Source: Bifidobacterium mellis
Lineage (GTDB): Bacteria; Actinomycetota; Actinomycetes; Actinomycetales; Bifidobacteriaceae
NCBI RefSeq assembly: GCF_000967265.1
Contig: NZ_KQ033885.1
Coordinates: 595,552-659,551, forward strand
Direction: 5' to 3'
Length of the DNA: 64,000 bases
This document shows, one piece after another, positions 2,981-19,437 of this stretch. Position 1 is the stretch's first letter. Each line of letters opens with the position of its first letter. A program made the position numbers and the translations under genes. The notes under the pieces were generated by a model. The model saw only the letters and a program-made list of their open reading frames with translations. It had not been told where the DNA came from and ran no database searches.

Positions 2981-3061
2981 ACCACTGAGTGGTACCTGGG
3001 TTGGCAATACCACATCCATATAATTCAACGAATTGACAAAATCGATCCGTCCCCCTACTCT
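2981..3061 (+). promoter_or_regulatory. xylA promoter and upstream palindrome
   Basis: A good sigma-70-type promoter is visible: TTGACA at 3033-3038, a 17-bp spacer and TACTCT at 3056-3061. It predicts an untranslated leader of roughly 70-75 bases before the xylA start at 3142. A perfect palindrome ACCACT-G-AGTGGT lies at 2981-2993, about 40 bp upstream of the -35, and could bind a regulator. A TATAAT at 3019-3024 lacks a usable -35. No gene was found in the 2760-3141 gap. Confidence 0.6.
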
Positions 3062-3141
3062 TGGTGTTCAGGAGGCAGGAACTGGTTTCCTCCCCTGTGA
3101 ACGCCGTAAAGGCAGATGCAATAGGCAAAGGAGCATTTCGG

Positions 3142-4485
3142 ATGGGTCTGTGGGACGTCGACAAGATCGAGTACGTGGGTCGCCAGGGCGTGAAGGAAGG
3201 CCTGGGTTTCCGTTATTACGACAAGAACAAGGTGGTGGCCGGCAAGCCTATGAAGGACTGGCTGCGCTTCGCTGTGGCATGGTGGCACACCTTCAACCAG
3301 GGCCTGGTGGATCCCTTCGGAGATCCCACCGCGCAGAGGCCCTACTACCGCTACACCGATCCCATGGATCAGGCGCTGGCCAAGGTGGACTACGCCTTCG
3401 AGCTCTTCACCAAGCTTGGGGTCGAGTTCTTCTGCTTCCATGACCGCGACCTGGCTCCCGAGGGCGACACCCTGCGTGAGACCGATGCCAATCTTGACAA
3501 GGTGATCGACCGAATCGAGGCCGCCATGAAGGACACCGGGGTCAAGCTGCTCTGGAACACCTCGTCGCTCTTCACCAACCCCCGCTTCGAGGCCGGCGCC
3601 GGCACCTCGCCCTTCGCTGACATCTACGCCTACTCGGCAGGACAGCTCAAGCACAGCCTGGAGATCGGCAAGCGGCTGGGTGCCGAGAACTACGTATTCT
3701 GGGGCGGCCGCGAGGGCTACGAATCCCTCTGGAACACCCGTATGAAGGAGGAGCAGGACCATATGGCCGCCCTCTTCCACATGTGCGTGGACTACGCCAA
3801 GGAGATCGGCTTCGACGCGCAGTTCCTGATCGAGCCCAAGCCCAAGGAGCCCACGCTACACCAGTATGACTACGACGCGGCCACCACCATCAACTTCCTG
3901 CGCACCTACGATCTGCAGGATAACTTCAAGCTCAATATCGAGGGCAATCATGCCAACCTGGCCATGCATACATATCAGCATGAGGTCCGCGTGGCCCGCG
4001 AGGCCGGATTCCTGGGATCCTTGGATGCCAACCAGGGCGACAAGCTGATCGGCTGGGACATGGACGAGTTCCCCTCGGACCTCTACGATGCCACCGCCGT
4101 CATGTGGGAGGTGCTGGCCAACGGGAGCATCGGGCCCCGCGGAGGTCTGAACTTCGACGCCAAGCCGCGCCGTTCCTCCTTCCTGCCTGAGGACCTCTTC
4201 AGGACCCACATCGTGGGCATGGACACCTATGCCGCCGGTCTGCTGGTCGCGGCCAAGATGCATGAGGACGGCTACATCGAGCAGCTGCAGCAGGAGCGTT
4301 ACTCCTCCTTCGAGTCTGGCATCGGCGCCACGGTTGAGGACGGCACGGCCACGCTGGCCTCCCTTGAGGAGTACAGCCTTGACAAGCCGCAGGCCGAACT
4401 GATCGCCGCCGACAAGTCCGACCATCTTGAAGTGGTCAAGGCCACCATCAACAACTACATCGTCGAGGCTCTGGCCCAGGCCTGA
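3142..4485 (+). CDS. xylA: Xylose isomerase
   Basis: This 447-residue class II xylose (glucose) isomerase interconverts D-xylose and D-xylulose. The catalytic His100 and Asp103 lie in [13 protein letters not shown]. The metal-binding residues appear in order: Glu in [10 protein letters not shown], the Glu/His pair in [17 protein letters not shown], and Asp residues in [20 protein letters not shown] chose the ATG at 3142 because it begins with the family N-terminus ([13 protein letters not shown]), follows AAAGGAG, and lies downstream of the promoter ending at 3061. An in-frame ATG at 3061 would overlap the -10 element. Its partner kinase xylB is 18 kb away at 22809-24350, so the pathway genes are split. 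A hairpin terminator follows. Confidence 0.97.
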
Positions 4486-4505
4486 GCTTTAGCTAAGCAT
4501 CGCTC

Positions 4506-4546
4506 AACCCTGTACGACGGAATTCGCCCCGTCGGGCAGGGTTTTC
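4506..4546 (+). terminator. Rho-independent terminator after xylA
   Basis: AACCCTG and CAGGGTT arms enclose an inner CGACGG/CCGTCG stem and are followed by a TTTT run at 4542-4545. It lies 20 bases after the xylA stop. The rest of the 4486-4819 gap holds no gene, only the promoter/operator of the next unit. Confidence 0.85.
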
Positions 4547-4753
4547 TCGTGCGCTTTCGGCTACCCGGAATTCCTGTATGTCATCGTGAGGAGACACTCG
4601 GAAGTGTCTGCGGAAAAACAAAGCGGGGATTTTCTGATCTGAGTAATGCCTAAGGCTTGAGGAATGGCCATTCCTGGAGAACTGCATTTCTGTTCTTCTC
4701 AGCAACTTTTCTGTGTTTCCGAGGATTTTTGTGGCTCTTGTGTGGTAAAGGGC

Positions 4754-4778
4754 TATAATGGAACTAAATCGCTTTAGT
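4754..4778 (+). promoter_or_regulatory. -10 element and LacI-type operator of GH18/ABC unit 1
   Basis: TATAAT (4754-4759) is followed three bases later by a perfect 6-bp-arm palindrome ACTAAA-TCGC-TTTAGT (4763-4778). No good -35 is visible at 16-18 bp. The same arrangement, with one differing base inside the palindrome, occurs at 10332-10356 before the alpha-mannosidase. An operator overlapping the start of transcription with a central CG is typical of LacI-family repressors; the LacI gene near 18298 is the obvious candidate. Confidence 0.75.
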
Positions 4779-4819
4779 AGATCATCGAAGAACTACTGCG
4801 AACAACATGGAGGTTGTCG

Positions 4820-5746
4820 ATGTCGAATGAGGCAGAGGGCAGGCCAGACGGTAATCGCGAAAGTGACGAACCAGGACCTATTTTGGCCGGTTATTACCGC
4901 GCCTGGCACGATAACTGCGGAAAGCCGAAAAGGGGTTCGATTTCACTTGGCGATGTGCCTGCAGACCTGGATCTTGTGTCAATCATCACCAATGGAGAAG
5001 TCGATGATGATTTCTGGGTCGCTCTGCCGGCCTACATTGAAAAACTTCATGCGCAGGGCACAAAGGTGGTCAGAACCTTGTTTTTGGACTGCCTCTATCG
5101 GGATGCCTACGAGGATTGCGGCAAAGTCCACACTTTTGCCAGGCTTGGCGCAGAAAACGGCGGACCAGATCGCCGTGCGGACGAGATAATTGCCAACTAC
5201 CTGGAGCCCTTTGACTACGACGGCCTGGTGATTGATGTCGATCATGAACCTGAGTCCGAGCAAATGGCTGCCGTCGCCGAGGTGTTTCACGCTTTGGCGA
5301 GAAAGTGGGGACCGGGTTCAGCGTCCTCACGCCTCATGATCTTCGATCAGGATATTCTTCTGCCTCAGACCAGTCTGATTGCTCAGGTCTATCAGGATTG
5401 CTCCTATTACTTTGCCGACACCTATGGCATGGATGTTCGTCGTATTCAGGGACTTTTCGAGCAGGTTCGCGACTTTGTCCCTGCTTCGAAATTCGTCACT
5501 GGTTTTTCATTCTATGAAGAAGGAGGCCCTCGATGGGGTGATGTCACGTATCCGATTGAAGGAAGCAGGGTCAAAGATCTCCTATCCTGGCATCCGTTTG
5601 ATGCGTACCGCACGGGGGGACTGTTCGCCTATGCAATAGATCGCGATGGGGTTGCCCAAGGTGACGATCGGTTGCGGCGAACCGATTTTAAAACCATGCA
5701 CTATTTGAAAGAAGAATTGGAGAACAAAGGAGTCTCTCATGAATAA
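4820..5746 (+). CDS. EndoS-like GH18 protein, cytoplasmic, altered catalytic motif
   Basis: This 308-residue single-domain protein resembles the catalytic domain of endo-beta-N-acetylglucosaminidases that cut the chitobiose core of N-glycans (EndoS type). The shared features are GYYRAWHD near the N-terminus, QGTKVVRTLFLD, GFSFYEEG and GGLFAYAIDRDGVAQ at the C-terminus. The GH18 signature region reads D134-G-L-V-I-D139-V-D141-H-E143. Compared with the usual DxxDxDxE as I recall it for EndoS, the second Asp is Val137 and the catalytic Glu position holds Asp141, unless Glu143 substitutes after a shift. There is no signal peptide. The ATG at 4820 follows GGAGG with 6-bp spacing. It is first in an operon with an ABC importer and overlaps the next gene by 8 bp. 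A low-activity hydrolase, a changed specificity and a non-catalytic role are all possible. Confidence 0.75.
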   Translation: MSNEAEGRPDGNRESDEPGPILAGYYRAWHDNCGKPKRGSISLGDVPADLDLVSIITNGEVDDDFWVALPAYIEKLHAQGTKVVRTLFLDCLYRDAYEDCGKVHTFARLGAENGGPDRRADEIIANYLEPFDYDGLVIDVDHEPESEQMAAVAEVFHALARKWGPGSASSRLMIFDQDILLPQTSLIAQVYQDCSYYFADTYGMDVRRIQGLFEQVRDFVPASKFVTGFSFYEEGGPRWGDVTYPIEGSRVKDLLSWHPFDAYRTGGLFAYAIDRDGVAQGDDRLRRTDFKTMHYLKEELENKGVSHE

Positions 5747-7097
5747 ACTAGGAAAGATATCAGTCATGTTGCTGGCCGCAGCTACCAGCGTCGGGATTTT
5801 ATCGTCGTGCGGCTCTTCCGAATCGGATAAGAAAACAGTCAAGTTTGCCTACCAGGCCACCGGAGACACCAGTGCCATAAGCAAGTGGATGAAAGACGTC
5901 AAAGCTCAGTTTGAGTCTGAGAATAAAGGCGCTACTTTGAAGCTGGAGCCTATCAAGTCGAACGGGGATGACTACGGCAGCAAGCTGGCCTTGATGAGCA
6001 AATCCGAAAAAACCGCTCCAGACCTCATGATCCTTGACACGGAAATGATCCGTCCCTATGTCGCAGCTGGTTACCTGAAGCCCATTGATGACCAACTGAA
6101 AGGGTGGAAGGACTGGTCGCAGTATTTTGACAGTTCCAAGAACGCCGGCAAAGCCGATGATGGAAAAATCTATGCGGTGCCTCTGGGTACTGACACCAGG
6201 GGCATCTGGTATAACAAGGACATTCTCAAGAAGGCCGGCCTGAGTGACGACTGGCAGCCTAAATCCTGGGATGAGGTGATTGATGCAGCGACGAAGATCA
6301 AGAAAACGCAGCCTGATGTAATACCGATGAACCTCTATGCCGGCCGTCCTCTGGGAGAGGTCTCAGTCATGCAGGGCTTCGATATGCTTCTTTACGGAAC
6401 CAAGGGTGGCACACTATACAACACCAAGACTCAGAAGTGGGTCACTGGTTCCAAGCAATTCAAAGACTCCCTACAGTTCATCAAGGATATTTACAGCAAG
6501 GGTCTGGCGCCCACGCCCCAGCAGGCTCTGGATCCTCAGCTTGGTGACAAGGTCGGGCAACAGTGGATGCCTCAGTCCAAACTTGGTATGTCGATCGAGG
6601 GCAACTGGCTGGCTTCATCGTGGATGCCCGGCGGCGACAGCGAATGGACCGACTGGCAGAAGCATATAGGCTGGTGTGGATTCCCAACTCAGAACGGGCA
6701 GAAGCCTGGTCTGATTTCCATGTCTGGCGGTTGGGGCCTGGCGCTGTCCAGCCATACGCAGAATCCTGATCTTGCTTTCAAGGCACTCAAAGTTTTCCAA
6801 AATGAGAAGCATGCTGCCGCGTACGACACAATCTCCGGATCGATCGCGGTGCGCAAGGACGTAGAGCAAGACAAGAAGTACCTGGGATCCAATCCCACTA
6901 TCAAGTTCTTCACGGATTTGGCCAAGTACAGTCAGTACAGGCCGGCGAACTCCCAGTACAAAGAGGTTTCCGACCAGGTCGCAATAGCCACGGAAAGCGT
7001 ATTGACCGGCCAGAAGTCAGTCAAGGATGCAGCAGCTGAATACGATTCTGCGATAGCCAAAACCGTAGGTGCCGATCATACGCAAGCCGCGAAGTAA
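5739..7097 (+). CDS. Sugar ABC transporter substrate-binding lipoprotein (unit 1)
   Basis: A 452-residue family-1 extracellular solute-binding protein. The N-terminus is a lipoprotein signal peptide with lipobox L21-S-S-C24, so the mature protein should be lipid-anchored outside the membrane. The body has the usual carbohydrate-binding pattern, including APDLMILDTEMIRPYVAAG and YAVPLGTDTRGIWYNKDIL. It overlaps the GH18 gene by 8 bp and precedes two permease genes, so it should deliver glycans released by the secreted GH18 protein of the same unit. The substrate, probably an N-glycan-derived oligosaccharide, is inferred from context. Confidence 0.9.
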   Translation: MNKLGKISVMLLAAATSVGILSSCGSSESDKKTVKFAYQATGDTSAISKWMKDVKAQFESENKGATLKLEPIKSNGDDYGSKLALMSKSEKTAPDLMILDTEMIRPYVAAGYLKPIDDQLKGWKDWSQYFDSSKNAGKADDGKIYAVPLGTDTRGIWYNKDILKKAGLSDDWQPKSWDEVIDAATKIKKTQPDVIPMNLYAGRPLGEVSVMQGFDMLLYGTKGGTLYNTKTQKWVTGSKQFKDSLQFIKDIYSKGLAPTPQQALDPQLGDKVGQQWMPQSKLGMSIEGNWLASSWMPGGDSEWTDWQKHIGWCGFPTQNGQKPGLISMSGGWGLALSSHTQNPDLAFKALKVFQNEKHAAAYDTISGSIAVRKDVEQDKKYLGSNPTIKFFTDLAKYSQYRPANSQYKEVSDQVAIATESVLTGQKSVKDAAAEYDSAIAKTVGADHTQAAK

Positions 7098-7141
7098 CCG
7101 AATTCCATTCGCGGGTTTTCTTTCGCGACTGAGAGAAGAAA

Positions 7142-8032
7142 ATGAATAGCAGCACAAGAAAGAAATTGATAAACGCTGGGCACTACACCCCGATTCTGCC
7201 AGCAGCGGCGATGATGGTGATTTTCCTGCTTGGCCCAATCATATGGTCCCTGTATGCCTCGCTGACCGACTATTCAATGGTTGGTTCAACGGCTGTCAAC
7301 CCACACTTTGTTGGTCTGAAGAACTATGTGACGCTCTTTACGGATCCTGTTTTCCCCAAGTCCCTGTGGCTGACCATCCTTCTAATTCTGGCCTCGGCAC
7401 TAATTGGGCAGAACATACTGGGTATGGTCTTGGCTCTGCTCAGTCAAAAAGCGCCCAGAAGACTGACGAAGGTCGTTGACTCAATAGTTGTTTTGGCTTG
7501 GGTCATTCCGGATATAGTCGGGTGCTACTGCGCCTACGCGCTCTTTGCTGGCGGAGGCACTCTTGACGCTTTGGGCAAGGTGGTGGGAGCCGATTGGTCG
7601 GCCCTTCTCTACTACCATCCAATGACCATCGTCATCATTGTGAATGTCTGGCGCGGCACCGCCTTTTCAATGCTCATCTATCAAGCTGCTCTGAACGACA
7701 TCTCCAAGGATGTTATTGAAGCTGCTGAGATAGACGGCGCGAATGCCTGGCAGTCTTTCTTCAGAATCAAGCTACCTATCATGCGGCACTCGATTCTTAC
7801 CAATCTGATGTTGATCACCCTGCAGACACTCTCTGTCTTCAGCATCATCATTGTGCTGACGGGCGGGGGGCCAGGCACGAATTCGAGCACCCTTCCCGTT
7901 CTCGCCTACCTGGAGGCTTTCAACTTCTCGAAGTTGGGATATGGAACCGCCATCTCGGTGATATTGGTCGTTGTGGGTGCCCTATTCTCGGTGCTCTATA
8001 TCAAGTTGCTAAGGACGAATGATGAAGACTGA
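7142..8032 (+). CDS. Sugar ABC transporter permease, MalF/UgpA type (unit 1)
   Basis: A 296-residue inner-membrane permease with about six hydrophobic segments. The cytoplasmic coupling loop is EAAEIDGANAWQSFFRIKLP (about residues 198-217), which is the EAA motif that contacts the ATPase. It is the first of two permeases and overlaps the next gene by about 11-14 bp. A GAGAGAAGAAA stretch serves as ribosome site. No ATPase gene is present in either ABC cluster, so a shared MsmK-type ATPase encoded elsewhere is likely. Confidence 0.92.
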   Translation: MNSSTRKKLINAGHYTPILPAAAMMVIFLLGPIIWSLYASLTDYSMVGSTAVNPHFVGLKNYVTLFTDPVFPKSLWLTILLILASALIGQNILGMVLALLSQKAPRRLTKVVDSIVVLAWVIPDIVGCYCAYALFAGGGTLDALGKVVGADWSALLYYHPMTIVIIVNVWRGTAFSMLIYQAALNDISKDVIEAAEIDGANAWQSFFRIKLPIMRHSILTNLMLITLQTLSVFSIIIVLTGGGPGTNSSTLPVLAYLEAFNFSKLGYGTAISVILVVVGALFSVLYIKLLRTNDED

Positions 8033-8882
8033 AGCCACTCTTGATCCACGGATGAACGCACCACACAGATATGACTGGATGAAACTGGCCGCTGCGGTAC
8101 TGACAGCCCTGATAGGGTTTCTTTTCGCTGCGCCCATGCTCTGGCTGCTGGTGGCCTCCTTCAACACGCATGCGACCCTGTCTTCGTTCAACTTGGGTTT
8201 TTCCTTCCAGAACTTCGTCAAGGTATTCAACATGCAGACCTTCGGGTTGCCTATCGTCAACTCGCTGATCATCAGTATTGGCACATCGGTCCTGGTGGTG
8301 ACTTTTTCAGTCCTGGCAGCCTACCCTCTATCCAGATTCCGTTCAAAGACCACCAACCGGACCGTCAACGCCATCCTCTTCGCCAGCTGTCTGCCGATTA
8401 CAGCCATGATGGTCCCTGTATACGGGATATTCGTCCAGCTTCATCTGATTGATTCACTGACCGGGACTGTTCTTTTCATGACTGCCTGCGGATTGCCGCA
8501 AGGCATCTTCATGATGAAGAATTTCATGGATTCAGTGCCGGTTACCTTGGAAGAAGCCGCTTGGGTGGATGGAGCCACGAGGATGCAGGCCTTGTTCCAT
8601 GTGGTCGTGCCTCTGATGGTCCCATCGCTTCTGGTCATCTTTATTTCGGAATTCGCCGGGAACTGGGGGAACTTCTTCGTTCCCTTCATGCTTCTGATGT
8701 CTCCGGATAAGGAGCCGGCAGCCGTCAGTATATACACCTTCTTCGGGCAGCATGGCACGGTTGCCTACGGCCAGCTGGCAGCTTTCTCCCTGCTGTATTC
8801 AATACCTATTCTGATTATTTACGAAGTCACGAATAGATACATTGGCAACCAAACCCTGCTTGCCGGTGCGGTCAAGGAGTAG
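8022..8882 (+). CDS. Sugar ABC transporter permease, MalG/UgpE type (unit 1)
   Basis: A 286-residue permease of the second type, with about six membrane spans and the EAA loop EEAAWVDGATRMQALFHVVV. Two adjacent ATG codons (8019 and 8022) are possible starts inside the end of the preceding permease gene, which indicates translational coupling. It pairs with the permease at 7142 and the lipoprotein at 5739 to form one importer. Confidence 0.92.
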   Translation: MKTEATLDPRMNAPHRYDWMKLAAAVLTALIGFLFAAPMLWLLVASFNTHATLSSFNLGFSFQNFVKVFNMQTFGLPIVNSLIISIGTSVLVVTFSVLAAYPLSRFRSKTTNRTVNAILFASCLPITAMMVPVYGIFVQLHLIDSLTGTVLFMTACGLPQGIFMMKNFMDSVPVTLEEAAWVDGATRMQALFHVVVPLMVPSLLVIFISEFAGNWGNFFVPFMLLMSPDKEPAAVSIYTFFGQHGTVAYGQLAAFSLLYSIPILIIYEVTNRYIGNQTLLAGAVKE

Positions 8883-8970
8883 AGACGAAGCGTCGATGCC
8901 ACAGAGAGGAGGAAATCGACATTTTATCTGCTTCAGTTAAAGCAAAGGCAAGTTTGAAAAGAGATCAACC

Positions 8971-9948
8971 ATGAAAATCCGGAGATTGTTAACGGCATCA
9001 ATGGCCATATTGGCCTTAGCCGGAACGTCTGCGATAGGGGCGGCTACTGCCTGGGCCGAGCCTGCTGTTCAGGGGAAGACCCACGAGATGACCGTCGCCT
9101 ATTTCAGGGCCTGGAGGGATACGCATTCGGATCCGACTGTCAATTTCAACTCGATGTCGGATCTGCCCAAGCAGGTGGACATAGCCATCGCCTTCCCCAA
9201 CCCGGAGACCACTCAGGCCTTCTGGGACACTCTTCCTGGGCAGATTGAGTCCCTGCACAAGCAGGGTACAAAAGTGATCAGGAGTCTGGATATCAGCCTC
9301 TTCTATAAGGATGATTTCAACGACCCTCATGATCATCAGTCCCTTTCGCCCATGGAGAGCAACGCAGAGGGGTACGCCAAACGCGCCAGCGAGCTCAAGA
9401 AGTCCTATCTTTACTTCCCTGGACTGGACGGCTTTGTTGTCAACGCAGAGGCGAGCATGACCTCCACTGACGTTCAACGAGCCACAGGGGTTCTCAGGGC
9501 CATGTCGAGTTACTACGGGCCCAAGTCACCTGAGCCGAGTTCCATCTTTGCCTACAACACCAACAAGCCCGGAACCAACAGCCTTTATAGGGGAGTGTCC
9601 GACGTAGTCTCTTACGTCTTCGCCGATGCCTACGGGCGTTCGGTCGGAGCCCTCCAGCGGGATTGGGAGACCTACAAGGGCACAATCAAGAGCAGGCAGT
9701 ACATTCCGGGTTTCTCGTTCTATGAAGAGCGTGGCGGATGGTGGTATGACACCGAAGAGCCGATGTCAACCAGCAGGGCCATGCAGTACGCTCTTTGGGA
9801 GCCTGACGGCGGGGCCGATGGCGCACAAAAAGGCGGCATTTTTGAGTATGCCGTCGATAGGGATGGAGTGCGTCGTGGCGACGACAAGCTTCAACCTACG
9901 ACCTTCGAATGGACCAAGGCCCTTTCGGCAGCCATGAACAAGAAGTGA
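8971..9948 (+). CDS. EndoS-like GH18 protein, secreted, Asp-to-Asn in catalytic motif
   Basis: A 325-residue paralogue of the GH18 protein at 4820. It has a cleavable signal peptide ending about AATAWA-EP (residues 24-31) and no LPxTG or other anchor, so it should be released outside the cell. EndoS-like landmarks are YFRAWRD, NSMSDLPKQVDIAIAF, QGTKVIRSLD, GFSFYEERGGWWYD and GGIFEYAVDRDGV. The signature reads D153-G-F-V-V-N158-A-E160: the catalytic Glu is kept, but the Asp two positions earlier is Asn and the second motif Asp is Val156. The EndoS QVYG segment is ADAYG here (D219), as in the paralogue (ADTYG, D200). Asn at that position is normal in GH85 endoglycosidases. It closes unit 1 and is followed by a strong terminator. 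It is probably the enzyme that frees N-glycans for import. Confidence 0.75.
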   Translation: MKIRRLLTASMAILALAGTSAIGAATAWAEPAVQGKTHEMTVAYFRAWRDTHSDPTVNFNSMSDLPKQVDIAIAFPNPETTQAFWDTLPGQIESLHKQGTKVIRSLDISLFYKDDFNDPHDHQSLSPMESNAEGYAKRASELKKSYLYFPGLDGFVVNAEASMTSTDVQRATGVLRAMSSYYGPKSPEPSSIFAYNTNKPGTNSLYRGVSDVVSYVFADAYGRSVGALQRDWETYKGTIKSRQYIPGFSFYEERGGWWYDTEEPMSTSRAMQYALWEPDGGADGAQKGGIFEYAVDRDGVRRGDDKLQPTTFEWTKALSAAMNKK

Positions 9949-9964
9949 TGACCATCTGAAAATC

Positions 9965-10002
9965 GAGGGTCCTTCTGCCTTCCGGCACCTGGACCCTCTT
10001 GT
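9965..10002 (+). terminator. Rho-independent terminator after GH18/ABC unit 1
   Basis: GAGGGTCC (9965-9972) pairs perfectly with GGACCCTC (9991-9998), with an inner TGCC-TTCC-GGCA stem, followed by TTGTATT. It separates unit 1 from unit 2. Confidence 0.85.
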
Positions 10003-10331
10003 ATTGTTGAGGGCTTTCCCGATTGCTAGTGCCGATTCAACATATTGGGGGAAACGATCTCGGATATATACCCTTGAGAGCTGCCAATTCGCGAACAGTG
10101 AACAAGGGCCATTTCCGGGAGCTACAACATAAGGCTGAGGTGTGCTCGGAGGCTGCAAGTCTTGATAGGTCAATGGGTTTTCTCAAAGCAGTTGAAGGTC
10201 CCAAAATGTCGTGATACCGCCCTTCGTCAGGTATCCATCCTGGTGGAATCTGGGCTTATACCGACTTTTCGAACTTGTGAATAGAAACGCGCTATTTTGT
10301 TGGGGGCCATATCTTTGGATATTGGATAGGG

Positions 10332-10356
10332 TACAATTGAACTAAACCGCTTTAGT
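10332..10356 (+). promoter_or_regulatory. -10 element and LacI-type operator of mannosidase unit 2
   Basis: TACAAT (10332-10337) is followed three bases later by ACTAAA-CCGC-TTTAGT (10341-10356), a perfect 6-bp-arm palindrome. It matches the operator at 4763-4778 except for one central base, and the identity extends to flanking GA and AGA bases. No convincing -35 was seen. The remainder of the 9949-10392 gap, apart from the terminator at 9965, shows no gene. Confidence 0.75.
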
Positions 10357-10392
10357 AGAGATGCGAAGCGGACCTACGAGGAGGTTGTGAGG

Positions 10393-13300
10393 ATGCAGCT
10401 GAAGATAGAACGCGTGCTTGACAAGTGCGATCGTGTCATGCGTCAACGCGTGCTACCGAAGATTGAGCGGCCCATGGGCAAGGTCCAAGTCCGCTCTTTC
10501 GTCATTTCCGGGGAACCGATACCGTCATCGGAGTTCTTCAAGAAAGTACAGAGCAAGAGTGTGGACTTCCGGCCTCTCTCCTTGGGGGATACCTGGGGCA
10601 CGACCTGGGGGACCACCTGGATGGAGGTGACCGGTCGCGTCGATGCCGACTGGGCGACCAGGGCTCCTATCGAGCTGGTGGTCGACCTGGACTGGCATCC
10701 GGATGCGCCGGGCGGTCACTTTGAGGCCCAGGCATATAGGAGTGATGGTTCGATCATCAAGGCCGTCAATCCCCGCAACCGCTGGATTCCGCTTGACGGC
10801 ACTGACCTGGATGGGAATCCGACACATGACGAAGCTTCGGTCATCGACGCTGATGGAACCTTTACCATCTATCTGGAAGCGGCCTGCAATCCGCTCTTGC
10901 TTGGAACCCCCGCATTCGTGGAGACGCAGCTGGGCGAGGGAACCACGGGACGCGCCGATGAACCCAATGTCCTCAAGCAGATGGATGTCTGCCATTTTGA
11001 CCATGAGGCATGGAACTACTATATGGATCTTGAGGTCACAGCCCAGCTGATCCGTGAATGCAACGAGAGCCAACCTCGGTACTGGCGTCTGGGCAAGGCC
11101 CTGCAGCGTTCGCTGAATATCTACGATGAGCGTGACCTGACCACATTAGCACCGGCTCGACAGGCCCTGGCCGGTGTGCTGGCAGTGCCGGCGACCCCCA
11201 GCGCCCTGGATCATGCGGCAGTGGGGCACTCCCATATTGACTCCGCCTGGCTCTGGCCCAAGCGGGAGACCAGGCGCAAGGTGGCGCGGACGGTATCGAA
11301 CATGCTTGCGCTGATGGAGCGCGACCCTCAATTCATCTATGCCATGAGCTCGCCCCAGCAGTATGCATGGCTGGAGGAGGATCATCCTGATCTTTTCGCC
11401 CGTGTCAAGCAACGCATCCAGGAAGGTAGGTTCATCCCCGTCGGAGGGATGTGGGTGGAATCCGACGGCATGCTGCCCTCAGGGGAGTCGTTGACCCGTC
11501 AGTTCACCTATGGCAAGCGGTACTACCGGGAGCATCTGGGGGTGGATACGACAGTGGTCTGGGAGCCGGACAGCTTCGGCTATACGGGCCAGTTCCCTCA
11601 GATTGCCCGCCGTGCAGGAATGACTTCATTCCTCTCGCAGAAGATCTCCTGGAACGATACGACCAAATTCCCGCACCATACCTTTGATTGGCAGGGCATC
11701 GACGGCACTGCCATCTTCACGCATTTTCCTCCCATGGATACCTATGCCTCCAACATGACGGCCCGGGAGCTCAATCACTCCGAAGAGAACTACCAGGACA
11801 AGGACATCTCGACCAGGGCCCTGGTCCTGTTCGGCTATGGAGATGGCGGCGGCGGCACCACCAGGGAGATGCTGGGACGCTATGACCGTCTGCATGACGT
11901 TGAGGGGTCGGCCAAGGTGCGGTATCAGGCCCCTGAAGACTTCTTCCGGCAGTCAGAGGAGGAAATCCGCAAGGAGGCCGGTTCCGAGATGCCCGTCTGG
12001 AAGGGCGAGCTCTATCTGGAGCTGCACCGTAAGACTCTGACCTCCCAGCAGGATATGAAGCGGGGCTGCCGGCAGGAGGAGGCCATGCTGCGCACGGTCG
12101 AATACCTGTGCGCCTACGCCGGCTTGGTCGATGACTCCTACACCTACCCCCGTCAGGAGCTGGACGAGATCTGGCGCACGCTTCTGCTCAACCAGTTCCA
12201 TGACATTCTTCCGGGTTCCGCCATTTCCTGGGTGCACAGGCTGGCCAGGGAAGACTACCACAGGGACATCGCCCGTCTGGAGCAGATCGGCGATGAGGCT
12301 GCCCGCGTCATAGCCTCCGCACAACCACAGGCTTCCATGGTGTCCGATGCCAAGCTGATACCCATGGAGGGCAAGGGTCAGACGGCCTGGGAGGCTGTTG
12401 GACCAGTCCATGCCCAGGAGGGGCCTGAGGGCATCCAGCCTGTCCAGGTCAGTCAAGAGGGCGATGGATTCGTCATGGACAACGGTCTTATCCGTGCCGT
12501 CGTCGCTTCGGATGGCGAGGTTCATTCCATTCTTGACAGGACCTCCGGCAGGGATCTGGTTCCGCAGGGCTCCTCGGTGGGCGGATACGAGCTCTTCAAG
12601 GACGAGCCCTACATGTGGGATGCCTGGGATCTGGAACGTGATGCCCTGCTGACCGCTGCTCCGGTCGATGACCCAGTCACCATGGAGGCCTTGGAATCCG
12701 GTGTTCGGGTATCGCGTCGGCATGGGGAGACCACCATCGTGACCACAATCGGGCTGACCCCGGGCGGCAGGCAGTTGGACTTCACTGCTGACGTGGATTG
12801 GCACCAGGATGAGCAGCTGCTCAAGGTGGACATTCCCGTCGCCGTTCAGGCCAGGTACGCGCAATTCGAGTGCCAGTACGGCTTCATCGATAGGCCCATT
12901 CAGAAGAACAACGCCGCTGAAGAGGCTCAGTTCGAGAGCTGCACGCACCGATTCGTCAGGATCAGCGACGACGACCTTGCTGTTGGCGTGGTCAACGCTT
13001 CGACATACGGCGGCGACACCACACCGATTCACTACGACGAGAAGGCTGGCAAAGAGGCAGGCACCTTGGTCAGGCTGACCCTCCTGTCGGCTCCGGTCTT
13101 TCCCGATCCGCATACCGATAGGGGCAAGCACAGCTTTGCCTGGTCCATCGTCCCTGGGGACACCCAGGCTGACATTCTGCAAGCAGCCTATGCCCTCAAC
13201 GCGCCGGTCTTCCATCATGGACTGCCTGCCGTTGAGCCCCTGGCTGGTGTCGAGGATATTCAGGGCACTACCGTCATCGACTGGATCAAGACGGCTGATG

Positions 13301-13542
13301 ACGACAGCGGCGATGTGATCGTCAGGGTCTACAACCCGGATTCTTCGCCCTCCAAGGCCAGGCTGCGCACAGGATCCGTCCTGCAGGGGACGACTGTGAA
13401 AGAGACCAACTCCCTGGAGAATGGTCCTGTGCCCGAGGGTGTGCGGCCAGGCCTGTGCTCCGAACAGGGTGCACAAGCTGATGGGGCCTTGCTGGATCTT
13501 GTTCCCTTCCAGTTCACCACATTGAGACTCTCCAGGCGCTGA
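10393..13542 (+). CDS. GH38 alpha-mannosidase, cytoplasmic
   Basis: This 1049-residue enzyme is predicted to remove alpha-linked mannose from imported high-mannose or trimmed N-glycans. GH38 landmarks are the zinc-site motif H279-S-H281-I-D283, the nucleophile Asp393 in VWEPDSFGY, and His603 in NQFHDILPG. The long N-terminal region before the barrel and the C-terminal beta-domains match the large cytosolic alpha-mannosidase (MAN2C1-like) branch. There is no signal peptide. The ATG at 10393 has AGGAGG eight bases upstream; a GTG at 10387 would sit too close to that site. It is the first gene of unit 2, directly under the LacI-type operator. Confidence 0.95.
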   Translation: MQLKIERVLDKCDRVMRQRVLPKIERPMGKVQVRSFVISGEPIPSSEFFKKVQSKSVDFRPLSLGDTWGTTWGTTWMEVTGRVDADWATRAPIELVVDLDWHPDAPGGHFEAQAYRSDGSIIKAVNPRNRWIPLDGTDLDGNPTHDEASVIDADGTFTIYLEAACNPLLLGTPAFVETQLGEGTTGRADEPNVLKQMDVCHFDHEAWNYYMDLEVTAQLIRECNESQPRYWRLGKALQRSLNIYDERDLTTLAPARQALAGVLAVPATPSALDHAAVGHSHIDSAWLWPKRETRRKVARTVSNMLALMERDPQFIYAMSSPQQYAWLEEDHPDLFARVKQRIQEGRFIPVGGMWVESDGMLPSGESLTRQFTYGKRYYREHLGVDTTVVWEPDSFGYTGQFPQIARRAGMTSFLSQKISWNDTTKFPHHTFDWQGIDGTAIFTHFPPMDTYASNMTARELNHSEENYQDKDISTRALVLFGYGDGGGGTTREMLGRYDRLHDVEGSAKVRYQAPEDFFRQSEEEIRKEAGSEMPVWKGELYLELHRKTLTSQQDMKRGCRQEEAMLRTVEYLCAYAGLVDDSYTYPRQELDEIWRTLLLNQFHDILPGSAISWVHRLAREDYHRDIARLEQIGDEAARVIASAQPQASMVSDAKLIPMEGKGQTAWEAVGPVHAQEGPEGIQPVQVSQEGDGFVMDNGLIRAVVASDGEVHSILDRTSGRDLVPQGSSVGGYELFKDEPYMWDAWDLERDALLTAAPVDDPVTMEALESGVRVSRRHGETTIVTTIGLTPGGRQLDFTADVDWHQDEQLLKVDIPVAVQARYAQFECQYGFIDRPIQKNNAAEEAQFESCTHRFVRISDDDLAVGVVNASTYGGDTTPIHYDEKAGKEAGTLVRLTLLSAPVFPDPHTDRGKHSFAWSIVPGDTQADILQAAYALNAPVFHHGLPAVEPLAGVEDIQGTTVIDWIKTADDDSGDVIVRVYNPDSSPSKARLRTGSVLQGTTVKETNSLENGPVPEGVRPGLCSEQGAQADGALLDLVPFQFTTLRLSRR

Positions 13543-13564
13543 ATCGCCTGACCAAGGGTGTCTG

Positions 13565-13600
13565 TCCGGCCGGTTCGCTCGTCGTTTTGGACCGGCCGGA
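13565..13600 (+). repeat. Intercistronic inverted repeat between mannosidase and ABC lipoprotein genes
   Basis: TCCGGCCGGT (13565-13574) and ACCGGCCGGA (13591-13600) are perfect 10-bp complements around a 16-base loop. There is no U-run after it, so it is more likely an mRNA-stabilising or attenuating stem that sets the level of the downstream lipoprotein than a full terminator. Confidence 0.6.
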
Positions 13601-13643
13601 AGCTCCACAAAGAAGTGAGTAGTAAAAAAGAAAGGAAGCTCCG

Positions 13644-14945: not shown

Positions 14946-14947
14946 CT

Positions 14948-15919
14948 ATGTGCCGCACCGACTCTTCCGCCATCCGGCCGAAGGCTTCCGCCCTCGGCCG
15001 GCACGGTGGGTCCCAGGCCGGGGTCCAAGGCGGCAAGGGGACCCACTGGACCACGGCCCTGGCCCCCTACCTGTTTGTCTTCCCGGCCTTTGCCATCGTT
15101 TTCATCTTCGTCATCGTAGCTGCGCTGAATACCTGCCGGCTGGCCTTTACTGATTCCACGCTGCTGCGCCCGGGCAAGTTCGTGGGCATCGAGAACTTCG
15201 TAAAGATTGTGCATGACGACTATTTCTGGACCGCGTTGCTCAATTCCACCCTCTACGTGGTCTGTGTGGTCCCCTTTATGGTCATCCTTCCCCTGATGCT
15301 GGCCAACCTGGTCAAAGGGAACTCCAGAATCATGGGGTTCTTCAGAACCTCCTTCTACACTCCTGTGGTCATGTCAGCAGTGGTGGTGGGAATGATCTGG
15401 ACCAACCTGTTGGATCCCAAGGGGCTGGTCAATTCGGTTCTGGAGTCCTTGCACATCATCCACAGCCCGATTCCATTCCTCAGCGATCGCTGGCTGATAC
15501 TGTTCACATCCATGTTCGTCACCATCTGGCTGGGTCTGGGATACTACATGGTCATCTACCTGACCGCGCTGGCCAACATCGATATCTCCCTCTACGAGGC
15601 CGCCTCACTGGATGGGGCAGGCCCGATAAGGCAATTCCTGTATGTCACCATCCCAGGAGTGAGATCCACCATCGTGCTGATCATGATGCTGTCCACCATT
15701 GCGGCCTTCCGCGTGTTCAACGAGATCTACGTGCTCACCAACGGCACGGCTGGTCCCGGCGGCGAGGACATCACCATGTCCATGCTCATCCAGAGGGAGG
15801 GCACGGGCATCCAGGCCAGGACGGGCTATGCCAGCGCTTTGTCACTGATTGTTCTGGTTGTTGTCGGAGCCATGCTGATTCTGCAGCAGATTATCCAGAA
15901 GCGGGGGGAGGACTCATGA
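14948..15919 (+). CDS. Sugar ABC transporter permease, MalF/UgpA type (unit 2)
   Basis: A 323-residue permease. A hydrophilic N-terminal extension of about 35 residues precedes the first membrane span (LAPYLFVFPAFAIVFIFVIV). The EAA loop is YEAASLDGAGPIRQFLYVTI. It begins only 2 bp after the lipoprotein stop and has a weak ribosome site, so it is probably translated by coupling; a later start is possible because the first 30 residues are not family-like. It overlaps the next permease by 4 bp (ATGA). Confidence 0.9.
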   Translation: MCRTDSSAIRPKASALGRHGGSQAGVQGGKGTHWTTALAPYLFVFPAFAIVFIFVIVAALNTCRLAFTDSTLLRPGKFVGIENFVKIVHDDYFWTALLNSTLYVVCVVPFMVILPLMLANLVKGNSRIMGFFRTSFYTPVVMSAVVVGMIWTNLLDPKGLVNSVLESLHIIHSPIPFLSDRWLILFTSMFVTIWLGLGYYMVIYLTALANIDISLYEAASLDGAGPIRQFLYVTIPGVRSTIVLIMMLSTIAAFRVFNEIYVLTNGTAGPGGEDITMSMLIQREGTGIQARTGYASALSLIVLVVVGAMLILQQIIQKRGEDS

Positions 15920-16755
15920 AAAGCGGTCACTCCAAAGTCACTGTTGGCAAGGTCATTCAGTATCTTGTGCTCATACTGGTCTTCATCCTGCTGGTGGGGC
16001 CCTTCGTCTGGGAGCTCTCGCTCTCCTTCAAGGGCAAGGGCGACAATGTCTATGCGGTTCCGCCCTATATCATCCCGAAGACGCCCACCTGGAACAATTA
16101 TCTATCCGTATTCAGGCAGGTTCCGGTCTTCCGGTACATGCTGAACACGGTGATCGTCGCCATTCTTTCCATCGGTGGCAACGTCATCTTCTCGACCATG
16201 GCCGGATACGCGCTGGGCCGGCTCAAGTGGCGCGGGCGCAACATGCTCTTCACTATTTTCATGGGCACCATGGTCATCCCCGTCGAGGGTGTGGTCATCT
16301 CCCAGTTCCTGATCGTCAGAAGCGTCGGCCTGCAGAACACCCTGTTGGCCGTCGCCCTTCCAGGCATGGTGGGCGCCGTCAATATTCTGCTCATGACCAA
16401 TGCCTTCAAGGGCATCCCGGATGAGCTGGAGGAGGCGGCCGAGGTGGACGGAGCCAATCTTTGGCAGCGGTTCTACCGGATATGCGTGCCCCAGGTCAAA
16501 GGCACCATGACCGTCGTCGGCATCTTCGCATTCGTGGGCGCCTGGAATGATTTCCTCTGGCCTCTGATTGTCATTTCCGACGAGTCCAACTACACGCTCA
16601 CACTGGGCATGAACCGACTCAAGGGCATGTTCGTTTCGGATCCCAGATTGATAGCAGCGGGGGCGCTGGTCTCCCTGATACCGATTCTGGTCTTCTTCGC
16701 CTGCTTCCAACGCTACTTCTTCCGTGGTCTGGAACAGGGTGGCATCAAGGGATAG
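15916..16755 (+). CDS. Sugar ABC transporter permease, MalG/UgpE type (unit 2)
   Basis: A 279-residue permease with about six membrane spans and the EAA loop EEAAEVDGANLWQRFYRICV. The ATGA overlap with the previous gene indicates coupled translation, preceded by a GGGGGGAGGA ribosome site. It completes the second importer of the locus; as in unit 1, no ATPase gene accompanies it. Confidence 0.92.
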   Translation: MKSGHSKVTVGKVIQYLVLILVFILLVGPFVWELSLSFKGKGDNVYAVPPYIIPKTPTWNNYLSVFRQVPVFRYMLNTVIVAILSIGGNVIFSTMAGYALGRLKWRGRNMLFTIFMGTMVIPVEGVVISQFLIVRSVGLQNTLLAVALPGMVGAVNILLMTNAFKGIPDELEEAAEVDGANLWQRFYRICVPQVKGTMTVVGIFAFVGAWNDFLWPLIVISDESNYTLTLGMNRLKGMFVSDPRLIAAGALVSLIPILVFFACFQRYFFRGLEQGGIKG

Positions 16756-16762
16756 CGTCATC

Positions 16763-18055
16763 ATGAAATTTGGAGTCAATTACACCCCCTCCCACAACTG
16801 GTTTTATTTCTGGCTGCATCCGGATTGGGATGCCGTCGCCGAAGACCTCGACGACATTGCGTCCATTGGGCTGGACCATATCCGCATCTTCCCGCTGTGG
16901 ACGATTCTCCAGCCCAACAGGACCTGGATCAACGATGCCGGCCTGGACGACCTGAGGCATATGGCCGCCATGGCGGATGAGCGAGGACTGGATGTCTATT
17001 CGGATGTCATCCAAGGGCACATGTCCAGTTTTGACTTCGTGCCCTCCTGGCTGGTCTCATGGCATGAAACCAATATGTTCACGGATCCGGACGCAGTCCA
17101 GGCGCAGGCCCGGTTGGTCGCTGCGGTCTATGAGGCCCTGGCGGACCTGCCGCATTTCCGCGGTCTGACCATCGGAAACGAGTGCAACCAGTTTACCGAC
17201 CGTGTCCATCCGCGCCGGATGCCCTCCACCTCCAAGGAGGCTGAAGGCTGGCTGCTGCAGCTGTTGAACCCGTTGAAGGAGAGGGCGTCCCAGGAAGGCC
17301 GCGTGCTTCTGCATTCCGAAAACGACGCGACCTGGTATCAGGATGGCCACGCCTTTCTTCCGCGATATGCGTCCAACATCGGAGATATGACCTGCATTCA
17401 TTCCTGGGTTTTCAACGGCGCCGCCCAGGAGTGCGGCCCCTTGGCCGAGGAGAGCACGCGGCATGCCGAGTATCTGGTGGAGCTTTCAAAGGCTTTTGCC
17501 GATCAGCCCCATCGGCAGGTTTGGGTGCAGGAGATCGGTGCACCGCTCAATGTAATGGGCGCAGAGCAGACCGCTGACTTTTGCAGGTCTTCAGTGGAGC
17601 ATGCTCTCGACTGCGGCGACATGTTCGGCATCACCTGGTGGTGCTCGCATGACGTCGACCAGCGGTTCGGTGATTTTCCTCCCTTTGAGCATCAGCTGGG
17701 TCTGTTCGATCAAGAGAAGCACCTCAAGCCCATAGGCCAGGCCTTCGCCCAGGCGGTGAAGGACTACTCCGGCAAGGAGGATTCTCGGCCCAGGTCCACG
17801 GCTTTGGTCGTGGATGTGGACGAGAACGATGATCCCTTGCTCAGATCTGCCTGTGCGCCCGGCGGGTCCATCTTCAACAAGTGGATGGAACTCAGCCGTC
17901 AAGGTTCAAGGCCGGCCCTGGTCACCTCCCTGCATGCGGCGGATAGGAGCTGGCTGCAGGACAGGGGCATCAGTGAGTGCATCGCCGTCAAATCTGTTGG
18001 CGGAAGCACCTATAGCGCCGTATCCGACCCCTCCCTCCTGCGGAAAAAGTCCTGA
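16763..18055 (+). CDS. GH5 glycoside hydrolase, probable GH5_18 beta-mannosidase
   Basis: A 430-residue cytoplasmic TIM-barrel enzyme. The predicted acid/base is Glu140 in LTIGNECNQF and the nucleophile is Glu257 in VWVQEIGAP, both in the GH5 pattern. The start MKFGVNYTPSHNWFYFWLHP and RIFPLWTILQPNRTWI resemble bifidobacterial GH5_18 beta-mannosidases, which cleave Man-beta-1,4-GlcNAc from the N-glycan core. The ATG at 16763 follows AAGGGA. It ends unit 2, after the alpha-mannosidase and importer, which fits removal of the last core mannose. The C-terminal 100 residues form an extra domain of unknown role. The subfamily is recalled from sequence likeness, not from an alignment. Confidence 0.78.
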   Translation: MKFGVNYTPSHNWFYFWLHPDWDAVAEDLDDIASIGLDHIRIFPLWTILQPNRTWINDAGLDDLRHMAAMADERGLDVYSDVIQGHMSSFDFVPSWLVSWHETNMFTDPDAVQAQARLVAAVYEALADLPHFRGLTIGNECNQFTDRVHPRRMPSTSKEAEGWLLQLLNPLKERASQEGRVLLHSENDATWYQDGHAFLPRYASNIGDMTCIHSWVFNGAAQECGPLAEESTRHAEYLVELSKAFADQPHRQVWVQEIGAPLNVMGAEQTADFCRSSVEHALDCGDMFGITWWCSHDVDQRFGDFPPFEHQLGLFDQEKHLKPIGQAFAQAVKDYSGKEDSRPRSTALVVDVDENDDPLLRSACAPGGSIFNKWMELSRQGSRPALVTSLHAADRSWLQDRGISECIAVKSVGGSTYSAVSDPSLLRKKS

Positions 18056-18095
18056 CCGCGGCATACCCGGCTTCCCGATTCGGCTCCTGCTCTCA

Positions 18096-18139: not shown

Positions 18140-18297
18140 CGAGGTTGTGGGCCACGGTTTTGTGCGGATGAGGGTCTAAGTTAGGGTTAAAGGCCGATAT
18201 TCGTGTGCGCCTCAGGCGTGTGGCAGGCAGTCTGGCTTGCTGAGTCGGCCGAGCCGGATCACGGGTGTCGACGAGGATGGTTGATATGAGGTGGCGC

Positions 18298-19437
18298 ATG
18301 GGCGGCGAGTCTGATGGCGGAGAAACAGAAGCCAGAACGGGCTCGTCCGTTCACAGGGAGATGGATGATGCCAGGGTCAGCCTCAAGGACATAGCCAACG
18401 AACTGGGGATATCCCAGACCGCTGTCTCCTTCGCCATCAATGACAAGCCCGGAGTCTCCGACCAGACCAAGCGCAGGGTTCGCGAAGCAGCTGCCAGAAT
18501 GGGTTGGAAACCAGCATATGCCGCCCAGGCTCTGGGCAGTTCCAGGACCATGACAGTGGGCTTTGCCCCAGCCCGTTCCATGGATGCCTTCCAGACCGAA
18601 GGCTTCATGCTGCATTTCATGGCCGGCATACATGCCTCCCTGAGCCGGTCGGGCTACGGCCTGCTCTTCCGCCCCTGCGTCACCCTGGATGAGGAGCTGG
18701 ACACCTACAGGGACTGGGCCAGACGCAAGCGGGTCGATGGGGTGGTACTGGTGGACCTTCTCTCCGATGATCCCAGGCCCCGGCTCCTGCATAATCTGGG
18801 CCTGCCCGCTGTGTTGGCCGGGGGGCCCGACTCGGACAACTACCTGCCCTCGTTGTCCATCGACGATTCCCGAACTATGACGACGATCATGGACCATCTG
18901 AGTTCGCGTGGACATGTCCGGATCGCCTACTTGTCGGGGGACGCGAACCTCGACTATAGCCGCGCTCGTGTCTCTTCATTCCGGGAATTCGTCCGTCGGA
19001 AGAACCTCGGGGAACCGAAGGTGGAGTTCACGGATTTCACGCCTGATAAGGCCGCCGCCCTTACTCTTCGTCTGTCATCGGGGAAGAATCCGTATACGGC
19101 TTTTATCTATGAGAACGAGATCATGGCGGCGGCCAGTCTGCGCGTAATGCTGGAACACAGGATGGCATCCGCAACTGTGCCAGGATCTGATAATGTTATT
19201 GCGGCCACTGACTCGGTTTATATGAGTCTGCCGGCCATGGTCAGCTTCGAGGACAGCTTCATCTGCCAGAGCACCTATCCCTCCATCACGTCGGTCCATC
19301 GTGATGCCGGGCTCTACGGCACCAAGGTGGCCAACCTGCTTCTGAAGATCTTCCGGGGGGAGCAGGTGGGGGGCAACCGCCGTATCCTGACCCCCAAGCT
19401 GGTAATCCGCGAGAGCACGGCGCGTCCGGTTCGATGA
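18298..19437 (+). CDS. LacI-family transcriptional repressor
   Basis: About 379 residues. The helix-turn-helix is VSLKDIANELGISQTAVSFA (about residues 27-46), followed by the hinge helix and a periplasmic-binding-protein-like effector domain. It lies directly after the GH5 gene and before the GH2 beta-galactosidase. It is the best candidate to bind the paired ACTAAA-yCGC-TTTAGT operators at 4763 and 10341. The start is uncertain: ATG 18298 has GAGGTG four bases upstream, ATG 18286 has GAGGA eight bases upstream, and ATG 18361 would give the usual short LacI N-terminus but has its purine run directly against the codon. The inducer is unknown; a mannose-containing N-glycan fragment is a reasonable guess. 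Confidence 0.9.
   Translation: MGGESDGGETEARTGSSVHREMDDARVSLKDIANELGISQTAVSFAINDKPGVSDQTKRRVREAAARMGWKPAYAAQALGSSRTMTVGFAPARSMDAFQTEGFMLHFMAGIHASLSRSGYGLLFRPCVTLDEELDTYRDWARRKRVDGVVLVDLLSDDPRPRLLHNLGLPAVLAGGPDSDNYLPSLSIDDSRTMTTIMDHLSSRGHVRIAYLSGDANLDYSRARVSSFREFVRRKNLGEPKVEFTDFTPDKAAALTLRLSSGKNPYTAFIYENEIMAAASLRVMLEHRMASATVPGSDNVIAATDSVYMSLPAMVSFEDSFICQSTYPSITSVHRDAGLYGTKVANLLLKIFRGEQVGGNRRILTPKLVIRESTARPVR

What the first reader, a model, noticed from the sequence alone, without database searches (positions are those of the whole stretch)
4820..9948. Pair of EndoS-like GH18 proteins, one inside and one outside the cell, both with non-canonical catalytic motifs
Both proteins carry EndoS-type landmarks (YYRAWHD/YFRAWRD, GFSFYEE, YAxDRDGV), but the DxxDxDxE motif is changed differently in each. 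The cytoplasmic one reads D134-x2-V137-x-D139-x-D141, with Asp where the catalytic Glu should be. The secreted one reads D153-x2-V156-x-N158-x-E160, with Asn in place of the oxazoline-stabilising Asp. The second position resembles GH85 enzymes and also the Asp-to-Gln/Asn mutants used as glycosynthases. Both also share ADxYG where EndoS has QVYG, so the two changed sites may have co-evolved. This could define a new GH18 branch with altered chemistry, or a transglycosylating or binding role. The EndoS comparison is from memory.
Basis: partly seen in the sequence, partly recalled or inferred. Interest (0 to 1): 0.78.

Follow-up and report, generated by a model that had tools for sequence, protein, structure and literature searches.

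The report
Paired N-glycan cutters with rewired centres
A gut bacterium of the Bifidobacterium asteroides group carries two related proteins of a sugar-cutting family, one exported and one kept inside, whose normally fixed catalytic amino acids have been rearranged and kept under selection within a small gene set that looks built for eating protein-linked sugars; whether they still cut, and by what chemistry, can now be tested directly.

Summary
Window 8971-9948 encodes an exported, and 4820-5746 a signal-less, EndoS/Endo-CoM-type GH18 barrel (PF23916, E=2.8e-65 and 4.2e-50). Their motifs are D-x2-V-x-N-x-E and D-x2-V-x-D-x-D. This is not decay or chance. In a 98-row alignment, Asn for the oxazoline Asp occurs only in the exported clade (6 of 98) and Asp for the catalytic Glu only in the internal clade (6 of 98). 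Loss of the buried second Asp together with Gln-to-Asp at QxYG occurs in all 12 and none of the other 86. With motif columns blanked, the pair forms one supported clade with two branches; the internal branch reaches a Lactobacillaceae genome. dN/dS is 0.02-0.20. Among conserved columns, changes fall mostly at the catalytic centre. The genes flank an ABC transporter in a 14.9-kb cassette with close matches to known GH38 and GH5_18 mannosidases. A LacI-type palindrome with two places in the genome precedes both operons. Best reading: an N-glycan foraging system whose GH18 proteins use a rearranged active site. Activity is unproven. New variant of a known kind.

The parts
4764..4777 (.). palindromic operator-like site CTAAATCGCTTTAG just downstream of a TATAAT-like box, before operon 1
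   Evidence: pattern CTAAANCGNTTTAG (drawn up from this site) found twice in the window and at only these two places in the 2.13-Mb genome; present at the same place in L023-L026 and before the same operon in L022
4820..5746 (+). internal (signal-less) EndoS-type GH18 protein, motif D134-x2-V137-x-D139-x-D141, D200 in FADTYG
5739..7097 (+). ABC transporter sugar-binding protein (lipoprotein-type start, by eye), overlaps the end of the gene before
7142..8032 (+). ABC sugar permease 1
8019..8882 (+). ABC sugar permease 2
8971..9948 (+). exported EndoS/Endo-CoM-type GH18 protein, motif D153-x2-V156-x-N158-x-E160, N196 in YNTN, D219 in FADAYG
10342..10355 (.). second operator-like site CTAAACCGCTTTAG, before GH38
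10387..13542 (+). GH38 alpha-mannosidase, matched by solved alpha-mannosidases 7ufr-7ufu at 1146-1269 bits
13644..14945 (+). second ABC sugar-binding protein
14948..16755 (+). second pair of ABC permeases (14948-15919 and 15916-16755)
   Evidence: ORFs; weak homology (22-26%) to the first permease pair of L022; no family scan was run on them
16724..18055 (+). GH5_18 beta-mannosidase, closest to BlMan5B
   Evidence: 6mp2, E=8e-173; no Pfam match
18265..19437 (+). LacI-family regulator, likely to bind the two operators (inference)
   Evidence: conserved next to the module in L022
4493..19418 (.). extent of the cassette absent from genome G144 (empty site between xylA and the GH2 gene)

Best explanation
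The block is an N-glycan foraging cassette under one LacI-type repressor. The exported GH18 protein is an endo-beta-N-acetylglucosaminidase that frees N-glycans outside the cell with a rearranged centre: Glu160 remains acid/base, Tyr221 still holds the acetamide oxygen, Asn158 takes the oxazoline-orienting place as Asn does in GH85, and Asp219, placed where relatives have the Gln that touches the anomeric oxygen, replaces the buried Asp lost at 156 as the charge that tunes Glu160. The freed glycan is imported by the ABC transporter encoded between the two GH18 genes. The internal GH18 protein, with Asp139 kept and Asp141 plus Asp200 at the scissile oxygen in place of Glu plus Gln, acts on imported glycans or glycopeptides that still carry the chitobiose core. 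GH38 and GH5_18 then dismantle the mannose core. Shown: sequences, clade, conservation, purifying selection, gene order, shared operator-like sites. Inferred: each catalytic step, the transported sugar, repression by LacI, the location of the internal protein, and its substrate.
For: Family and fold. Rewiring at the catalytic centre: of 31 columns conserved in at least 90% of 86 typical rows, the exported clade departs in all six rows at exactly 156, 158, 196 and 219, and keeps 27 of 31 in all six. Pair conserved in a second genus at 60% (exported) and 44% (internal) identity with the same five-gene order. dN/dS 0.021-0.096 exported, 0.17-0.20 internal. Pathway: GH5_18 and GH38 matches. Operator-like pattern at two places in the genome, both before these operons. 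Roles of positions: EndoE product O1 bonds E186 and Q243, N2 bonds D184 and E186, O7 bonds Y245 (PMC8894350 passages); EndoS D231 shares a proton with D233 (PMC5951799 passages); GH85 uses Asn (PMC8374693 passages).
Against: No activity was measured. In EndoS, Ala mutations at Q303/Y305 abolished hydrolysis and D233Q is a transfer-favouring mutant, so the natural changes could equally depress hydrolysis. A cytoplasmic endo-enzyme has no chitobiose bond to cut if the exported one has already cut it. The internal gene is frameshifted in one genome (G128) and evolves faster. The two binding proteins' nearest solved relatives bind other sugars or are unassigned (1eu8 trehalose/maltose; 6wpm); the one N-glycan-type binder I recall, 5swa, is a weak match to the first (E=1e-4), so import of N-glycans rests on gene order.
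Confidence: 0.5

Rival explanations
1. The exported protein is an active endo-enzyme but the internal one is a pseudoenzyme that binds imported glycan as a sensor, chaperone or shuttle for the mannosidases.
For: Internal clade lost the catalytic Glu in 6 of 6 rows, kept the substrate-contact columns 202, 233, 234, 271, 274 (internal numbering), is less constrained and is broken in one genome that keeps the rest of the cassette.
Against: Asp is fixed at the Glu position across two Bifidobacteriaceae genera and a Lactobacillaceae genome, and Asp139, Asp176 and Asp200 are invariant; a mere binder need not keep an acid there.
Confidence: 0.22
2. Both proteins are non-catalytic glycan-binding proteins, like chitinase-like lectins: the exported one captures N-glycans for the transporter, the internal one senses them.
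For: Both depart from DxxDxDxE; mutations at the changed sites lower or abolish hydrolysis in EndoS.
Against: The exported protein keeps Glu160 and Tyr221 in all six rows; without it I recognised no other endo-acting enzyme in the cassette. A lectin would not explain the concerted Gln-to-Asp gain.
Confidence: 0.13
3. The exported protein is a natural transglycosylase: hydrolysis is weakened and glycans are moved between acceptors.
For: Its changes fall at D233, D279 and Q303 (EndoS numbering), and D233Q/Q303L and D233Q/D279S EndoS mutants hydrolyse less and keep transferring.
Against: The substituting letters differ (N, N, D instead of Q, S, L); a nutrient cassette gains little from transfer; GH85 enzymes with native Asn hydrolyse (established knowledge).
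Confidence: 0.1
4. The altered motifs are drift in decaying copies.
For: One frameshifted internal copy in G128.
Against: dN/dS 0.02-0.20, invariant substitutions across genera, most other conserved family columns kept.
Confidence: 0.03

Closest known systems
Endo-CoM of Cordyceps militaris (GH18, PDB 6kpl/6kpm/6kpn)
   Different: Endo-CoM has the normal D-x-D-x-E and QSYG (alignment); it belongs to enzymes described for fucose-containing glycans (PMC5762919, title and passages).
EndoS / EndoS2 / EndoE (GH18)
   Same: Same PF23916-type barrel; positions of EndoS Y305, E349/E350, Y402, D405 kept.
   Different: D231, D233 or E235, and Q303 are changed here; the window proteins have no extra domains.
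GH85 endo-beta-N-acetylglucosaminidases
   Same: Asn/Glu catalytic pair, as in the exported protein (PMC8374693 passages).
   Different: No GH85 profile among Pfam hits up to E=1; sequence and fold are GH18.
EndoBI-type GH18 of other bifidobacteria (NF049901)
   Same: Same domain family; host in the same bacterial family.
   Different: DGLDIDME and QQYG normal; far branch of the tree; the window proteins score 94.7 and 134.1 bits against a cut-off of 900.
Solved GH38 alpha-mannosidases 7ufr-7ufu and GH5_18 BlMan5B 6mp2 (Bifidobacterium longum, organism recalled)
   Same: Very close matches of the downstream genes of this cassette.
   Different: Here joined to a rewired GH18 pair with an ABC transporter between them.

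Membership tests
EndoS-type GH18 (PF23916) | Profile match over the curated cut-off | tested here: met
   171.1 and 220.8 bits against 27
EndoS-type GH18 (PF23916) | Barrel fold of the EndoS/Endo-CoM type | tested here: met
EndoS-type GH18 (PF23916) | DxxDxDxE catalytic signature | tested here: not met
   at columns 156, 158, 160: V or A, N, E in 6 of 6 exported rows and V or I, D, D in 6 of 6 internal rows; all 86 other rows keep D, D, E
EndoS-type GH18 (PF23916) | Substrate-contact residues (EndoS Y305, E349, E350, Y402, D405) | tested here: met
   columns 221, 252, 253, 293, 296 kept in all 12 rows; mapping to EndoS numbers by hand count
EndoS-type GH18 (PF23916) | Endo-beta-N-acetylglucosaminidase activity | not testable with these tools
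   needs protein and assay
GH85 | Asn/Glu catalytic pair | tested here: met
   N158/E160 in the exported clade only; that GH85 uses Asn is from PMC8374693
GH85 | GH85 sequence profile | tested here: not met
   no GH85 model among Pfam hits up to E=1
Chitinase-like lectins / pseudo-GH18 | Catalytic Glu lost | tested here: inconclusive
   exported: Glu kept; internal: Glu replaced by another acid, Asp, in 6 of 6 rows
Bifidobacterial N-glycan utilisation locus | GH38 and GH5_18 mannosidases, sugar ABC transporter and local regulator | tested here: met
Bifidobacterial N-glycan utilisation locus | Growth on N-glycans with induction of the cluster | not testable with these tools
   needs culture

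The most novel reading that the evidence does not exclude
A GH18 branch that has moved its catalytic carboxylate: the buried Asp of DxxDxDxE is gone and a new Asp sits at the Gln that touches the anomeric oxygen, creating a new variant of substrate-assisted catalysis (Asn/Glu/Asp outside, Asp/Asp/Asp inside). [quoted passage not shown] this would be the first endo-enzyme for pollen or bee glycoproteins (the fucose and diet part is inference).
Probability: 0.2. Interest if true: 0.85.

Novelty: new variant of a known kind. Interest (0 to 1): 0.62.

Why it matters
DxxDxDxE is the textbook mark of GH18, and EndoS-type enzymes are used to cut and rebuild glycans on antibodies. A natural branch changed at the very sites that engineers mutate, kept under purifying selection in a small N-glycan regulon, would show how far the GH18 centre can be rewired and could yield a natural transfer enzyme or an enzyme for plant and insect N-glycans. 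A 2023 review says no GH18 or GH85 enzyme with activity on plant N-glycans had been described (PMC10154615 passage). If the proteins turn out to be binders, they would be a new kind of GH18-derived binding pair in nutrient uptake.

Tried and rejected
A displaced catalytic Glu (E143 after D141) was rejected: Asn and Pro in the other two lineages. Pseudogene decay was rejected. Xylose genes (xylA 3061-4485, xylB-like 22812-24350) as part of a plant N-glycan pathway were dropped: they flank a site where other genomes hold other cassettes or, in G144, none, and no xylA or xylB match fell in the 19.8 kb around the module in the second genus (L022). The genome holds one GH29 hit and eight GH43 hits, none near the module. 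PF00704, the general GH18 model, finds nothing in the genome. Wider searches for the internal type: among 397 genomes sampled from the family of S. harbinensis, 15 matched, one of them (S. harbinensis itself) at E=1e-136 and the others at E=1.0e-39 or weaker; in 348 of its phylum it was the only match. In 347 genomes of the window's order 13 matched; those outside the genus scored E=8.4e-82 or weaker, and the nine of their rows that entered the alignment (L144, L145, L146, L148, L149, L150, L152, L156, L157) fall among the 86 typical rows. Phylum sample of 396: 13 genomes with a match, the window's own strong and the other 12 at 30 bits or less. One weak plasmid hit (Enterococcus faecalis, 27.9%). 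Limits: the genome-contig scan used two conserved peptide patterns, so members without them are missed, and it kept the best 80 of 85; the 98 rows include near-identical orthologs; domains under 240 aa, duplicates contained in another row, and one row under 100 bits (second gene of L055) were dropped before the counts. The tree tool warned of long branches (L096, L085) and of odd letter make-up in four rows, among them L045, a neighbour of the clade. The operator pattern was drawn up from the site at 4764, so that site matches by construction; with two mismatches allowed, 6 of 100 shuffles also reach two matches, with none allowed 0 of 100. In one search loci lying on the minus strand were read in the wrong frame; one search corrected this. 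EndoS and EndoE numbers for our columns were counted by hand from the alignments, anchored on the D234M title (one-residue offset to EndoS assumed) and on D184/E186 of EndoE. The structure paper of Endo-CoM was not held.
Full report

Which organism. The closest named records are Bifidobacterium sp. 7101, B. choladohabitans and B. asteroides ESL0199, at 98-99% identity of the exported protein; these belong to the bee-gut B. asteroides group (host recalled). Among 189 genomes of the family, 13 have the domain and 6 have the pair: five of the same genus and one of another genus, G162. In G128 the internal gene is split into two frames.

How unusual the motifs are. I aligned 97 distinct domains from loci plus Endo-CoM. 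At column 158 (exported numbering) 92 rows have Asp and 6 Asn, the 6 being the exported clade. At column 160, 92 have Glu and 6 Asp, the 6 being the internal clade. At column 156, 86 have Asp and 12 an aliphatic residue. At column 219, 86 have Gln and 12 Asp. These twelve are the same rows, six of each clade. At column 196, the six exported rows have Asn for Asp. Of 31 columns conserved in at least 90% of the 86 typical rows, the exported clade departs in all six rows at exactly 156, 158, 196 and 219; the internal clade departs in all six at 156, 160, 197 and 219, in five of six at 75, and in the Lactobacillaceae row alone at 96, 153 and 183. Change among conserved columns is thus mostly at the catalytic centre. 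The rows are not independent: five exported and four internal rows come from one species group.

One origin. With columns 153, 156, 158, 160, 196 and 219 blanked, a 73-row tree joins the exported and internal rows (four of each kept) into one clade (99/90), with each branch monophyletic (100/99 and 100/96). The internal branch includes Schleiferilactobacillus harbinensis (ITGLVIDVDH, FVDCYG, no signal sequence by eye, next to ABC permease genes). Among 397 genomes sampled from its family 15 matched, it alone strongly, and it was the only match in 348 of its phylum. The simplest order of events is loss of the buried Asp and gain of Asp at the Gln site in the ancestor, then a split into an Asn/Glu branch that is exported and an Asp/Asp branch that stays inside. 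The neighbours of this clade in the tree are two Pseudomonas proteins (97/82) with the typical motif; one of them was flagged for odd letter make-up.

Selection. Pairwise dN/dS (my own Nei-Gojobori script) is 0.021-0.096 for ten exported pairs and 0.17-0.20 for six internal pairs, the broken G128 copy left out. Both are under purifying selection, the internal one less so.

What the changed positions do in relatives. In EndoE with product, O1 of GlcNAc -1 bonds E186 and Q243, the acetamide N bonds D184 and E186, and O7 bonds Y245 (PMC8894350, passages). Counting by hand along the 7puj alignment, Q243 is our column 219, D184 is 158, E186 is 160 and Y245 is 221. In EndoS, D231 (column 156) shares a proton with D233 and keeps D233-E235 protonated, Q303 (column 219) touches O1, and Ala mutations at Q303 and Y305 abolished hydrolysis (PMC5951799, passages). 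EndoS D233Q/Q303L and D233Q/D279S hydrolyse less and keep transferring, and D279 and Q303 are described as near the catalytic residues (PMC5825150, abstract and passages). GH85 enzymes use Asn for this Asp (PMC8374693, passages). So the exported protein is altered at four of these sites (V for D231, N for D233, N for D279, D for Q303) and keeps the acid/base Glu and the Tyr. The internal one has V for D231, D for E235 and D for Q303 and keeps D233 and D279. A coherent, unproven reading is that the buried charge moved to the Gln site; an Asn at 158 no longer needs a proton-sharing partner.

Setting. The genes run internal GH18, binding protein, permease, permease, exported GH18, then GH38, a second binding protein and two permeases, GH5_18, LacI. 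The GH5_18 protein matches BlMan5B at E=8e-173 and the GH38 protein matches 7ufs at 1269 bits; that these come from B. longum is recalled. The order of the cassette is kept in four genus relatives, L023-L026, apart from the broken internal gene of G128. In G162 the five-gene GH18/transporter operon is conserved with LacI, GH5_18 and GH38 beside it, and a mannose-isomerase-like gene nearby. The 14.9 kb from 4493 to 19418 is missing in G144, where xylA is followed by the GH2 gene. L187, L188 and L189 carry other sugar genes in that place. Against the pathway reading, the binding proteins give no clear sign of N-glycan binding: their best solved matches are a trehalose/maltose binder and an unassigned one.

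Regulation. A palindrome CTAAANCGNTTTAG lies next to a TATAAT-like box before the internal GH18 gene (4764) and next to a similar box before GH38 (10342). I drew the pattern from the first site; the second is the independent find. It occurs at only these two places in the 2.13-Mb genome, at 0 in 100 shuffles of the window, and at the matching two places in L023-L026. In G162 it lies at two places before the internal GH18 operon and at one before GH38. L187 and L189, from genomes without the GH18 domain, have it before GH38 only; L188, L190 and L036 have none. This ties the odd GH18 pair to the mannosidases in one small regulon; that the LacI protein binds it is inferred.

Function. The exported protein is most likely an endo-enzyme that frees N-glycans; the transporter imports them and the mannosidases digest them. 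The task of the internal protein is the weak point: if the exported one leaves a single GlcNAc, there is no chitobiose left to cut inside. It may act on free glycans or glycopeptides that keep the core, or it may bind rather than cut. A plant or insect substrate is attractive for a bee-gut organism: a 2023 review knew no GH18 or GH85 enzyme active on plant N-glycans (PMC10154615 passage), and type II PNGases accommodate core alpha-1,3-fucose with an active-site Glu replaced by Gly and its function taken by another Glu (PMC9522356 passages). This remains a guess: the xylose genes beside the cassette belong to the insertion site, not to it.

Verdict. Real, conserved, unusual, and well placed in a likely pathway; chemistry unproven. 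New variant of a known kind. Each catalytic claim can be tested with two small proteins.

Noticed in passing
window 4493-19418; L187, L188, L189, L190: The gap between xylA and the GH2/xylB-like genes looks like a hot spot for exchange of sugar-utilisation cassettes in this genus; G144 has an empty site and three others carry different gene sets.
   Followed up: partly
window 4764-4777 and 10342-10355; L022 10060, 10204, 16093: Palindrome CTAAANCGNTTTAG, only two places in the whole genome, both before the operons of this cassette; present in a second genus.
   Followed up: yes
L036 2464-3378: Schleiferilactobacillus harbinensis carries a lone internal-type protein with the same Asp-for-Glu and Gln-to-Asp changes beside ABC permeases and an AraC-like regulator (neighbours named by eye).
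   Followed up: partly
L020/L021 and L023 3999-4960 (G128): Internal GH18 gene split by a frameshift in Bifidobacterium sp. 7101; the rest of the cassette is present; could be an assembly error.
   Followed up: no
L022 4481-5725: The exported protein of the second genus has an added C-terminal Listeria-Bacteroides repeat domain (Flg_new), absent in the window.
   Followed up: no
window 759-2759: A GH20-family protein only distantly related to solved members (best E 2e-10), next to xylA; substrate unknown.
   Followed up: no
window 5739-5746: The binding-protein gene starts inside the last codons of the internal GH18 gene, suggesting coupled translation.
   Followed up: no
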